Assembly: GCA_030141605.1 (NCBI GenBank)
Contig: JAQGDQ010000119.1
Coordinates: 419,505-483,504 of the forward strand
Length of the DNA: 64,000 nucleotides
Direction of reading: 5' to 3'
Source: Tubiluchus corallicola
Taxonomy: Eukaryota > Priapulida > Priapulimorpha > Priapulimorphida > Tubiluchidae
In this document: positions 34,201 through 43,200 of the stretch, piece by piece
Layout: each line of letters begins with the position of its first letter
How positions within the stretch are numbered: position 1 is the stretch's first letter
The notes under the pieces: generated by a model
What the model saw: the letters and a program-made list of their open reading frames with translations, nothing else
What the model was told of the DNA's origin: nothing
Databases searched by the model: none
Program-made: the position numbers and the translations under genes

Positions 34201-37200
34201 AATATCATACTTAATCTTTTGCAACGATTTGTTAGTTATATTTTTCAATGATTACAGTTACTGAATCAGCCTATAACTGTTTAACAGCTTGCAAGGCGCA
34301 TTCAACTCAAAAATTCACAATTAGGATTTTGGTTTTGATTTTTTTGCACTAATTACACTCAATACCAGTTTGATAATGAATTATGCATTTTCTCACATTT
34401 GTTTTCATATAGTGCTATAAAACTCCAAACTGGTCACTATTCTAGATTTTCTAACACAAGAAATGAGAAATCATCATCAATATGACGGCACCAGAACGCA
34501 CAAGAAAATAGGCTGTCTGTTCTTCAAGTAAAAGAAAATAATTTACAGCTCACTCAATCATTTCAGATTAATTAGCTTACAAACTTATTTATATCAACAT
34601 CCGCCTTCCTACTTCTCATGTTGTGAACTACCATGCTAAAAAAAAGCAGCAAAATACTTCCTTTCATCATTATAAACAAATCACTTTCTCGGCAACTTGT
34701 TAGCTGGGTAGCACAAAATTTGAAAATTTCTTTGACTGCTTTTACGTTTTGCTGAAAGCTTAGTCAAACTAAACCCTCACTATAACGTAAGCTTTTACAA
34801 CTGACAACTTGAATTCCCACTCTCATTGAGAATATTAAATTTATTTTATTATAAACTTACTGTAAAACTTATTTGCTTTCAATTTTTTATCACTTCACTG
34901 TTAGCATATCAAATTTGAAGAACGGCCATTTTTCATTGCTCAAGACGAGTGACGTAAGGAGTACAGCCACAAGGTCGTCGAGGATCGGTAAACAAACATC
35001 GGTAATCAAAGACGCTTGCTGTACTATGAATGTTATTCCCGCTCACTCAAATCAACGCAATACATGGCAATTTTTATGGAAATACAAGTTCGAAATAGGG
35101 AAATTATTTAATATATAAGTTTCTTTTGTTTAATAATAACTATGACTTCTTTGTGTAACCATAACAATGTGTTAAAAAAACTTCATTGTCTGATAGGAAT
35201 ATATAGGCCTTTAAAGAATCGTCCTCGCAAATATTCCACTTACATATACTCAGCACCAAAATCACGGAAAGCATCTCGGAACTGTTTGATTTCTAAATCT
35301 TTTACCACATGAAGCTGGCCTTCGCCAACGCCATCACGGTAGACCATCACTCGATCGGGAAGACGTTTGTTCAAGTGGTACCAAGCCTTCAATGTCTCTG
35401 AGACAAAGAAAGAAGCAAAATAGTTAATAAATAAACAAGTAAAAAACTCCATCCAGCAAAAAGGACCCTTGCATTCCTGATCAATTCTTTGTCCACTTCA
35501 GTTATAAAAAAAGTTTATTAACGAATATCACGATTTAAAGATGACTTCACAGATGCCGTTAACCATCACATCCCCTGACTGTTAGGCATGGCACCATTCT
35601 TTTCCTTTTTTCGAGGGCATTTCACAACTTAAAGTTGAAAATTAGCGACCCATCAGAACATGCTCAAAAATATCTTCAGTCTGTGTCAATGTTTTAGCAG
35701 TTTTAGCATACACAGCTAAAATGAACTAGTCACAATCATTAGCAATGTATAAATTTTCCAATTTGACCCTGGAATTATATACATGACAAAATAAAGCAAT
35801 GAGAACTCGAGCTAGTAAACAATAATACTACTGCAGATTTGCTTAAACACCTTCTCTATTGATTATACATAATAGATTGAACAGCCTTTGAAAGAATTAG
35901 GGCTGCTTTTAAAATACTTAATGCTTTACTACATAACATTAGCCATTAAATACAAACACAGATTTAGTAATCAGAATAATTTTACACAGTTTATCAATCA
36001 CCACTCACTTAAAACGATAAAACATTATAGAGTTTATAAATCTTTCCAATTGGAATTACAAGAAAATTTGGTTCAGCTTCGGTAAAAAAATTTCGTCCGA
36101 CTTCGATCTCGTATTCCAATTTAACGTGATAGTTTATTCAGAATTCGGTTTGGCAGCACAGAAATCATTCAGTTAGGCTTTAGTCTGGTGGCACCCAAAC
36201 ATAAAAAACAGCTTCGGTACAGTGGATAAAAATGCACCCTTGATGTACCTCTAACCTTGCCAGCCGTTTTCTTTCACTTAAACTAATTAGAGAAAGACGA
36301 CTTTAGACTACTATACTACACGATGAGTAACCTACAAAAAGTAAAAGTATCTGCCAACATTTACCGTTAAATAGTGGACGAATGGATCCAGTCAGCTCTT
36401 CATGATTCTTATTGAAAGAACATCTGGAATAATAGCGTGTGCATTTCTTATCACCTGTCAATGATGCCACAAAAGCGCAAACTGAGAGTCCCTTCTGGGA
36501 AGAATCGTGGTACGTGTCTAATCCAATTAGCATACAGTTGTCAAGCTATAAGAAAAGCAAATTACAATTCTTACAAAATACATCTCTACCTGTAAACCAG
36601 CAGAACGGAACAAGCACCTAAACAGATTAATGTTTACTTTTGACTTCACTAGAATCACCTCATTAGCAAAATGTTCTAATTTTCATATTACGTGTTATGA
36701 CGACAATTGGACATATAGCGTCGACATTTTTAACATTTTAAAACAAAAATAGAAATTGCGCAAATACCAGCTAATATGGCTTGTTTAATGGGCATCTTTG
36801 TCAGATCGTTTCTTGAAGTACCACTTATTCTAATCTGCACTACAGGTTCAGGTTGAAAGACCAAATAATGTATGTCCGATCTACTGACAGGTTGAAACTC
36901 TGGGCTGCTAGTTGCAAATTGTGTGGCTACTGTGTACAATGAGCCATAGTTTGCACCAACCTTCAGTAAACCAGGGATGTTACCGAAACATTTTCGTTTC
37001 AGTTTGCCGATAATTGCAGTTCGGTTCAGTTTCATTTTTGTCGCAAATTATTAAGTTTCGTAGTTGAAACTTTCCGTAATTTTCCATAGCATTTTTCGAC
37101 AGTTTTAGTAACATTTATCCAGCTTACCTTTTTTCCTCCTAGATGTTAAGAGTCATTCCGCGAGAAAACCATGCAAAAGTCAAAAAATAGTGGAAGGTGA

Positions 37201-40200: not shown

Positions 40201-43200
40201 CTTTGGCTAAAAATTCTGGATTCTTGGGAGATCGCTGGCCAAAATTTTATTTCATGCATTTGTAGGACTAGTCAAGCTGCAAATAAAAATATATTGATTA
40301 GTCCCCCAATACCCGCCCCAGTGGAGTTATGGGGATTTCAAAATGGCGTCTAAATTCAGCAGCAGCAGACACGTATCTTTTGCAATCTGATGACACCAAC
40401 TGAAAAGGAGGTTCAATTTGGCAACGATAATGGTACGGTAGGGTAAGACCCCTACTATATATATCACCAATTAACTAGTGCTGGATCGCTCATTTACTGT
40501 CTGTAATAACGTGAGAAATAATGGGCAATTTTTTACGCCAAAATGGCCAAAATCCGAAAAAAATCAAAATGGCGGCTTTTCTCCGAAACGGCTCATTTCT
40601 GAAATCTAATATTTTGGCTGTGGGGTACATCTGAGGGGACCATCAAACCCTGTGAATATGAACAAAATCGGTGATTTGTCACCTTCCACTATTTTGCTGA
40701 TTTTCTCACGGAATGACTCTTAAAAATCACTAAAAATTTTGGCAAAAATCTTATTCAAATAAAGCACAACTATCATTTATTTAACTATTTGTACCATTCA
40801 CAGCATGCTTTTTACGGCAAAATGTCAAAGCGTAATTTGAATAAAACCAGGTTTAATTTTATAATTTATGAAATATAGGCAAAAAAATATTTACAAAAAA
40901 AAATTGCCAATTTGATCTTTAACCATAAACAATGCTCTACTTTGGTTAGAATTTCTTGCCTGGCTACTTCATCAAGCTTGTATCAGAGCAAATAAAAGCA
41001 AAAACAAAGTATTTTATTTCTTTCAGAAATTACTCAGTTTTGATAGTTGCTGATTTTGCAAAAAATGATTTAGATTTTATTTTGTTTTGGTATCGGTTTC
41101 CTACATTTCATAAATTTCGGTTTCGGTTTGGAATTGCAGTTTCCGTAAAATGTCTGCAGTAAACACTTCAACTTTGGCAAGCAGCACTCCTCACTTAAAA
41201 AAGTAAAGTGAAGCCAAAATTTTTAAATTAAGAATAACGTATCACGCTGCATTTGCAAAGCCACTTGTTTGAGAAATTGCAATGAATACATATAAATGAA
41301 TTTCCAAATTAAGCTGTTACAGTGGACTCTCGTTATAAGAATCACCTCGGGAGAAGGCAAAGTGATTCTTATAACGAGCGATTCTTATAACGAGCATGAC
41401 CCAGAATTGCTTTAAAAAATTTTATGCACGTAAAAATTATTTATTTCCCGAAATTACGCTAGAAACGACATGAAACAGCATAATGTTTTTCTGGACTAAA
41501 AAGAACCTAAAAATTGCTAGACTAATGTTTTTATTTCATGGTTGGGTAAATATTTCATGATGCCAGAATTGCCTTAAAATTTTTTTAATGCACATAATTT
41601 TTGTCATAAAACAAACAAATTTGAAATCTCTGTGGTGTCCGCCACGCCCACTGCGCAGAACCATGTAAGCAGGGCATGAGAGACAATGGAGTTGGCGCCA
41701 AAATTGATTCTACTATCGAAAGAAGGGTGATTCTTATACGAGCAGATTTTCACTAGGAAAATACAGATTCAATTCGGGAAACGCGATTTTGATTCTTATA
41801 TCGAGCTGATTCTTATACGTGTGATTCTTGTAACGAGAGTTCACTGTAGCAGACTTCATTTGGCACTGAGCAAATAAACACCCAAATCCACACACAAAGC
41901 AGAAAATTACCTTAACATAAATTTTGTGACTTTGTATTTGGGGCACATACACAAGTAATTGAAATAAAACGTAAATTACTACTTTCACACACACGATCCT
42001 CAATCCTGTTACAAAGCCTCTCAGAATTTACATGCATTCTTTGCAATCCAGTAACTTTGTAAACACATCATCCTGGCTTGTAATACCTTACAATACACAT
42101 AAACTGCCTTAACCAAATATAGTGATGCACTTGTGTTTATAGCCAGCTTCCCCAAGTGACTGCAAGCTGCTCTATAATGAAATATAATAATGCTCTATAA
42201 TGTCTATAATGAAACTGGTACAATATGATATGGTATCAAAATGTACAACTGCACATTAAAGCCAGTTAAAGCACCAGCACAACATACGAGTAATCTTTTT
42301 TTTGCACCGCCACCTATGTATGTTTCATACCTGGGAATAAGTTGTACCGTGATACTATTTTACAAGTAAATTTTCAGGGGCTGTACATATAATGCAGAAA
42401 TCTCACATTTTCTTTATAAAATCATCATTACAAAAAACTGCGGAACTAAATGTTTGTCTAGTCAGCATATTAAAAATTATTTCATGTATTATTCTTATCC
42501 AAAGTCAGTATATTTATCATTACACAATAAGCCTAGCTATAACGAAGAACTCAAAATCAAAATGTATTTAATTCTTGTAGCCAATTCACTGTATTCTTAA
42601 TCCAAAATGTCTGTTTTTCACTCAAAATTAAAATATTAATTTCTTTAATTTATACAAGATTGACCCTATTCTATAGGCCCACTATTTTATACCATTTTCT
42701 CCATTTTGGACTGCTTAATTATATAGGAAATGACATAATTCTAAAAATTAGCTATGTTTCCTAAATTAAACTGACAATATTAATTTTCGTGGCCACCAGC
42801 GTCTAACGATCATTTTCTACATCCGGTAAAGGACAGCAGATTAGTTGACTTTTATAGTATTTTCACTATCCTTTCTCTCTAGTTTTATATTTAGCTATTG
42901 TAACAATTCTCCACGACTTACTAATTGATTCTGTTACTAATGATGTTCTATTACAGTGTTCAAAAGAGATAAATAAACTGAAATTAAGTTTGAATTGAAT
43001 CAAACTAAAAATGCTTTGTACAAAAACATACAAATGTGTCATTTATTAAGTGAGGAAAGTCATACAAATACAATGTTACTATAAAGTTTGCAAAAATATC
43101 ACGCTTACTGGTATAGCTGAACTCCACAACTCGCCTCCCAACTTACAATTCAGCTGTACGGCTACTTTGGTCATTACGCTCATTACCATTTGAGGCTTTC

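What the first reader, a model, noticed from the sequence alone, without database searches (positions are those of the whole stretch)
36964..41164. Nested transposons with both target duplications intact and an unoccupied relative in the same gene
A hAT element with an exact 8-bp duplication (CAGTAAAC) is split by a second element flanked by TTAA. The related hAT copy at 47677-48339 has one TTAA (48174-48177) at the matching place, in the context AGATATTAAAAATC, against AGATG-TTAA and TTAA-AAATC at the two borders of the insert. This gives the order of events and an exact boundary for the inner element, inside a gene whose product silences transposons.
Basis: seen in the sequence. Interest (0 to 1): 0.75.

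Follow-up and report, generated by a model that had tools for sequence, protein, structure and literature searches.

The report
Three nested transposons in Piwi intron
An old DNA transposon in an intron of a Piwi gene was split by a much younger transposon, which itself carries a fragment of a retrotransposon that favours simple repeats; it is a clean, dateable example of ordinary nesting rather than a new mechanism.

Summary
A 611-bp non-autonomous hAT copy (36972-37149 + 40724-41156, 8-bp duplication CAGTAAAC) is split at TTAA by a 3.57-kb element (37146-40723). The hAT copy at 47677-48339 and four further distinct genomic relatives have this site unoccupied. Ages fit: hAT relatives are about 72-87% identical, while copies of the inner family (33 paired sets of ends, 16 unpaired ends) differ by about 1%. 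Both hAT copies lie between exons of one Piwi gene. This LINE family and a second one sit mainly in TC microsatellites (18 of 27 and 15 of 19 junctions, none in reverse orientation, background 0.7%); a third does so in only 2 of 6. I found eight LINE insertions in the arrays of seven inner-family copies. Nesting and microsatellite-targeting LINEs are known kinds. Whether these families are already catalogued could not be checked. No transposase was found, so the inner element's superfamily (Kolobok-like ends) is unproven.

The parts
36964..36971 (.). left 8-bp target duplication of the hAT copy, CAGTAAAC
36972..37149 (+). left part of a non-autonomous hAT copy (starts CAGGGATGTTACCGAAAC), up to and including the first TTAA
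   Evidence: aligned with the second copy; 40 further genomic matches listed, 78-87%, six of them one repeated stretch
37146..40723 (.). inner TTAA-flanked element, 3578 bp counting both TTAA copies, no transposase frame
   Evidence: 82 ends of the family in the genome
37146..37645 (+). left arm of the inner element (inverted repeat)
   Evidence: 39 further matches listed, 98-99% (capped at 40); mean 0.67% from consensus over 30 copies, window copy 0.60%
37771..38987 (+). CT-rich simple-repeat array, unit about TCTGTCTCTC, with a pure GT run near 38484-38553
   Evidence: array lengths differ between copies
38987..39083 (+). 5'-truncated 3' end of a non-LTR retrotransposon (family d) with an AAATC-type tail; left junction uncertain by up to 4 bases (shared TGTG), right junction by about 2
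   Evidence: 39 further places at 94-100% (capped at 40); among 65 inner-family loci only the window copy has it, apart from different, longer insertions in L072 and L073
40234..40723 (-). right arm of the inner element (inverted repeat)
   Evidence: 39 further matches listed, 96-100% (capped at 40); window copy 0.20% from consensus
40724..41156 (+). right part of the split hAT copy (ends CGTAAAATGTCTG)
41157..41164 (.). right 8-bp target duplication of the hAT copy, CAGTAAAC
47677..48339 (-). second hAT copy of the same family with the TTAA at 48174-48177 unoccupied
52749..53039 (-). frame holding an N-terminal Piwi exon
   Evidence: Siwi E 9.9e-18; PF23278 2.3e-7
47142..47522 (-). frame holding the PAZ/linker exon of the Piwi gene
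   Evidence: Piwi-A 7kx7 E 4.5e-25; PF02170 1.7e-12
43100..43270 (-). start of the Piwi domain
36303..36545 (-). frame holding the next Piwi-domain exon, with GLDTYHD
   Evidence: PF02171 E 1.4e-5, 25.0 bits, below the 28.9 cut-off
35234..35428 (-). Piwi-domain match (1 TAA inside the match, read as running past the exon end)
33861..34058 (-). Piwi-domain match (2 TAA inside the match, read as running past the exon end)
33136..33291 (-). Piwi-domain match, no stop inside

Best explanation
Three successive insertions in one Piwi intron. First, a non-autonomous hAT element inserted with an 8-bp duplication (shown). Much later, a non-autonomous cut-and-paste element that duplicates TTAA, probably Kolobok-type, landed on a TTAA inside the hAT copy (insertion shown, superfamily inferred); its transposase would come from elsewhere (inferred, not found). 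Its CT-rich array then, or already in its source copy, received a 5'-truncated copy of a LINE that favours TC microsatellites (insertion and site preference shown; target-primed reverse transcription inferred from the family). The nest lies between two Piwi exons and is presumably spliced out with the intron (inferred).
For: Exact target duplications, and the joined empty site aligns with the second copy. Four further distinct hAT loci have the site unoccupied. The inner family has 82 ends that begin TTAA at the same base, control 0; copies differ on average by 1.2% (left arm, n=30) and 0.9% (right arm, n=29), and the flanks beyond TTAA differ between copies with the exceptions told in the report. 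hAT relatives are 72-87% alike, with one 79-bp piece at 92%. The LINE end has 39 further listed matches; relatives carry a reverse transcriptase frame upstream and, in L072, endonuclease and reverse transcriptase domains. TCTCTC-type flanks in 18 of 27 usable family-d junctions (30 examined) and 15 of 19 family-a junctions, reverse orientation 0, background 0.7%. Piwi exons lie on both sides of the nest.
Against: No transposase with matching ends was found. The 22-base end with up to 3 mismatches gave 90 places; five of these have 3 mismatches against 6 matches of the control, and one with 2 mismatches (C2274) was not followed. A looser pattern gave 174 places against 191 for its control and its list was cut off, so it decides nothing. 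The superfamily therefore rests on TTAA and RR...YY termini alone. The third insertion could have been in the element before it moved; the fetched loci do not cover every family copy over the array. Family c, also found in such an array, has TC flanks in only 2 of 6 examined. Nine of 27 family-d junctions fail the strict test, the window copy among them, whose flank is the imperfect CTGTGTCTC.
Confidence: 0.93

Rival explanations
1. The LINE fragment was already in the element's array when the element jumped into the hAT copy, so there were two events at this locus, not three.
For: The window copy was not compared with every family copy over the array; a DNA transposon can carry a passenger.
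Against: BLAST of the LINE end against the 65 inner-family loci (of 128 loci held; some loci show the same copy twice, and not all reach the array's end) hit only the window copy, the longer insertion in L072 and, at 70%, the one in L073; L071 runs from array to interior without it.
Confidence: 0.3
2. The inner element is not a cut-and-paste transposon but a foldback-type or recombination-generated insert, and TTAA is fortuitous.
For: Long inverted arms (about 500 bp, 82%) round a simple-repeat core resemble foldback elements (recalled); no transposase was found.
Against: 82 ends begin at the same TTAA; the arms of one element are 82% alike, while each arm is 96-100% alike between the listed copies: the mark of a mobile family with fixed ends.
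Confidence: 0.05
3. The TC association of the LINEs is not target choice: the microsatellites grew from the LINE tails after insertion.
For: LINE tails can seed simple repeats (recalled).
Against: The tails are AAATC or ATT repeats, a different unit from the TC array that follows. In the inner element the array lies on both sides of the inserts and L071 has an array without a LINE.
Confidence: 0.07
4. The junctions are assembly artefacts.
For: The assembly is redundant in places: six contigs carry the same three repeat matches at matching spacing over about 0.6 Mb, and C2147 and C2078 have identical flanks over 1.5 kb.
Against: Exact target duplications on both elements, and the same family ends on many contigs with different flanks, are not expected from misjoining.
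Confidence: 0.02

Closest known systems
hAT superfamily, non-autonomous (MITE-like) members
   Same: 8-bp duplication, short inverted ends beginning CAG, about 0.6 kb, many copies
   Different: no transposase in the copy; the autonomous partner was not sought
Kolobok superfamily (TTAA duplication, termini 5'-RR and YY-3'; passages of PMC9587614)
   Same: TTAA duplication, ends GA...TC
   Different: no transposase found; about 500-bp arms and a simple-repeat core; Sola3 (TTAA, recalled, not checked) is an alternative
piggyBac superfamily
   Same: TTAA duplication
   Different: ends start GAGTC, not the CCY that I recall for piggyBac
Microsatellite-targeting non-LTR retrotransposons (Kojima and Fujiwara 2004; only the title seen, in reference lists; that Kibi and Koshi target (TC)n is recalled)
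   Same: family d: APE-type endonuclease and reverse transcriptase, insertion in TC arrays in one orientation
   Different: clade not determined; two unlike families share the target; some targets are an array inside a DNA transposon

Membership tests
hAT | 8-bp target duplication | tested here: met
   CAGTAAAC on both sides; second copy only 5 of 8; L005 locus ATTACAGT on both sides (print)
hAT | short terminal inverted repeats starting CAG | tested here: met
   CAGGGATGTTACCGAAAC against CAGACATTTTACGGAAAC, 14 of 18, counted by eye (sequence)
hAT | hAT transposase | tested here: not met
   611 bp; no frame in it exceeds the 105-aa one that only partly overlaps; compatible only with a non-autonomous member
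Kolobok | TTAA target duplication | tested here: met
Kolobok | termini 5'-RR and YY-3' | tested here: met
   GA...TC; definition from passages of PMC9587614
Kolobok | Kolobok DDD/E transposase, own or from a partner with the same ends | tested here: inconclusive
   none in the interior; no partner by end patterns; transposase genes themselves were not searched for
piggyBac | termini beginning CCY (recalled) | tested here: not met
   ends begin GAGTC
(TC)n-targeting LINE | reverse transcriptase and APE-type endonuclease | tested here: met
   family d: PF00078 3.1e-26, PF03372 4e-10; family a: PF00078 2.1e-27, its endonuclease part was not in the frame scanned
(TC)n-targeting LINE | insertion in TC arrays in one orientation | tested here: met
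   family d 18 of 27, family a 15 of 19, reverse orientation 0, background 0.7%; family c 2 of 6 only
Tx1 clade (Kibi, Koshi) | place in the reverse-transcriptase tree | not tested
   no tree was built and no clade references were at hand; best solved relative of family d is LINE-1 ORF2p, E 1.9e-23, which does not fix the clade
Piwi gene | N, PAZ and Piwi domains in order on one strand | tested here: met
   the last part of the Piwi domain (catalytic His) was not located, and two of the four Piwi-domain matches in this gene run over stops

The most novel reading that the evidence does not exclude
The inner transposon family works as a mobile landing pad: its CT-rich array repeatedly draws microsatellite-targeting LINEs of unlike families, so each new copy of the DNA transposon seeds a new safe target for the LINEs, and the two kinds of parasite spread in step.
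Probability: 0.25. Interest if true: 0.5.

Novelty: new member of a known kind. Interest (0 to 1): 0.3.

Why it matters
The locus gives exact boundaries and an order of events for a transposon family that moved recently (about 1% divergence) in a genome that also carries Piwi genes. The LINE insertions stacked in the array of a mobile DNA transposon are a usable natural test of how microsatellite-targeting retrotransposons choose their sites. None of this changes known mechanisms.

Tried and rejected
An autonomous partner of the inner element was sought in three ways: long frames in the interior (none apart from simple-repeat translations, and LINE insertions in other copies), a 22-base end pattern with up to 3 mismatches and a 15-base pattern with 1 mismatch (174 places, control 191, list cut off; C118:23271, an exact place outside the stricter patterns, was not followed). 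Transposase genes were not searched for by family. I first took the 5-7 kb copies for autonomous elements; they are longer because of LINEs and longer arrays. I considered that C2147 and C2078 showed a LINE carried along by transposition; their outer flanks are identical over 1.5 kb, so they are one locus twice in the assembly. I considered that every LINE in the array shares the TC preference; family c does not clearly (2 of 6). Paper searches were seen as listings; nothing listed was recognisably about this nest or these families. Passages only were read of PMC4640811, PMC9587614 and PMC3747384. Two DOIs were not held. The host was not identified: for the PAZ exon the best solved relatives, Piwi-A 7kx7 (a sponge protein, recalled) and Siwi (silkworm, recalled), are nearly equal, while the N-terminal exon scores best with Siwi.
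Full report
Checking the observation. The hAT copy is bounded by CAGTAAAC at 36964-36971 and 41157-41164 and interrupted by a TTAA-flanked element at 37146-40723. Joining 36964-37149 with 40724-41164 gives 627 bases (611 without the duplications) that align through the site with the reverse complement of the second copy, AGATGTTAAAAATC against AGATATTAAAAATC. Local alignments cover both sides of the site separately. In the window's genome (343.5 Mb, 2344 contigs) the left hAT half has 41 listed matches including itself, from 40 candidates scored of 284, at 78-87% for the others; six of the places are one stretch repeated in the assembly. 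Of the seven further loci read, L002-L008 (L005-L008 being one repeated locus), each has the site uninterrupted: GATGTTAAAAATC in L002 and L005-L008, GACGTTAAAAATC in L003, GGTGTTAAGAAAC in L004. That makes four distinct unoccupied loci besides the one in the window. Against the joined window copy these loci are 72-84% identical, with smaller pieces up to 92% (79 bp in L002).

The inner element. Its ends are TTAAGAGTCATTCCGCGAGAAAA and, on the other side, TTAAGAGTCATTCCGTGAGAAAA. The pattern TTAAGAGTCATTCCNNGAGAAAA occurs 82 times (39 + 43; reversed-pattern control 0 + 0). By my count from that list these form 33 oppositely oriented pairs, 2.3 to 6.6 kb long, and 16 unpaired ends, several at contig ends. 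The 39 other listed left arms are 98-99% identical to the window's (40 scored of 92 candidates) and the 39 other right arms 96-100% (40 of 92), whereas the two arms of the window element are only 82% alike. Mean divergence from consensus is 0.67% for 30 left arms and 0.50% for 29 right arms (L060, cut by a contig end, was dropped), pairwise 1.2% and 0.9%; the window copy is at 0.60% and 0.20%. One search printed 68 ends with their flanks (some ends twice, through overlapping loci; TTAA itself is required by the pattern there). Beyond TTAA the flanks differ between copies, except for C2147/C2078 (identical over 1.5 kb, one locus twice in the assembly) and C1859/C877, which share a left flank while their right flanks differ; I did not resolve that pair. 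So the family is young and moved recently. Among the inner-family loci L009-L073 only the window's own lie in a hAT copy. No transposase frame is present. TTAA with RR...YY termini fits Kolobok as described in passages of PMC9587614; this is a resemblance, not proof.

The third layer. In the window the CT-rich array runs to about 38986, is interrupted by about 97 bases ending in an AAATC-type tail, and resumes as CTGTGTCTCTTTTGATAAGG. The stretch has 39 further listed matches at 94-100% (40 scored of 118 candidates; six of the places are one repeated stretch). Elsewhere it is the 3' end of a longer LINE: frames upstream carry a reverse transcriptase, and the copy in L072 has endonuclease and reverse transcriptase domains. 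I examined the 3' junction at 30 of the 40 places; three were unusable (contig end or N). By the strict test, TCTCTC or CTCTCT within 45 bases 3' of the LINE body, 18 of 27 are positive, none has the reverse orientation, and random stretches of the window give 0.7%. L083 and L084 are one repeated locus counted twice. The nine failures are the window copy itself (imperfect CTGTGTCTC), two CA arrays, two repeats of AGTC type and four other sequences. For a second family, a, 19 of the 40 listed places were examined: 15 are positive, none reversed; one of them, C2078, is itself an inner-element array. For family c, 6 of the 40 listed places were examined and 2 have TC flanks.

The array as a repeated target. 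BLAST of the LINE sequences against the 65 inner-family loci, with the printed junctions, gives LINE insertions in the array of seven element copies: window (d, about 97 bp), L069 (a), L070 (a; also seen as C2078), L016 (a), L072 (d, its 3' end lost together with the right part of the array), L073 (one d-like, one c) and L027 (a short c-like end, 74%). That is eight insertions. The three family-a insertions start at different points of the LINE (positions 1, 1499 and 2457 of the L069 copy), so they are independent. All eight lie in the same orientation with respect to the CT strand in those prints. L071 has a short array and no LINE. I did not measure the rate per length of comparable arrays outside the element, so the landing-pad reading stays a conjecture.

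The gene. Piwi-family sequence was located on the minus strand at 52749-53039 (N-terminal; found by a recalled motif, supported), 47142-47522 (PAZ to linker), 43100-43270, 35234-35428, 33861-34058 and 33136-33291, and 36303-36545 (frame with GLDTYHD; Pfam match below the curated cut-off). Two of the matches run over stops (one TAA in 35234-35428, two in 33861-34058), which I read as matches extending past exon ends; splice sites were not modelled. The nest therefore lies in the intron between 43100 and 36545, and the second hAT copy in an intron upstream of the PAZ exon. The same search found Piwi-domain matches on four other contigs. Nothing tested here bears on expression.

Verdict. The thing is an ordinary nest of transposons, made more informative by a third layer and by separate age estimates. 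Compared with known kinds: a non-autonomous hAT; a TTAA element that is Kolobok-like, membership unproven; and microsatellite-targeting LINEs, a kind in print (title of Kojima and Fujiwara 2004 seen in reference lists only; passages of PMC4640811 also mention microsatellite-specific families). I rate it a new member of known kinds with modest interest.

Noticed in passing
L005-L008, L083 and contigs C2107, C2074, C2072, C1974, C1831, C1752: Six contigs carry the same three repeat matches at matching spacing over about 627 kb (my subtraction), so the assembly is probably redundant there and repeat counts are inflated. The shared stretch holds a gene whose protein reads like a METTL6-type methyltransferase (recalled resemblance, not searched).
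   Followed up: partly
window 11625-12193: Thirteen-copy 43-bp minisatellite, 97% alike, open in all three frames of the + strand.
   Followed up: no
window 9277-9651, 17638-17969, 43494-43892: Three copies of one repeat family, 73-76% alike; a second family at 22867-23279, 26031-26334 and 28485-29109.
   Followed up: no
window 41321-41395: Close to the nest, CAGTGGACTCTCGTTATAAG followed by GATTCTTATAACGAGC repeats, reminiscent of pogo/Tigger-type ends (recalled, untested).
   Followed up: no
window 39189-39296: A 55-bp tandem duplication (98%) inside the inner element; L073 has one unit in the matching place.
   Followed up: partly
L072, reverse complement about 4060-4080: The family-d LINE runs directly into the element's interior: its 3' end and the rest of the array are missing.
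   Followed up: partly
C1859:376162-379573 and C877:106017-109426: Two inner-family copies share the same left flank but have different right flanks; cause not resolved (insertion in a repeat, or a misjoin).
   Followed up: no
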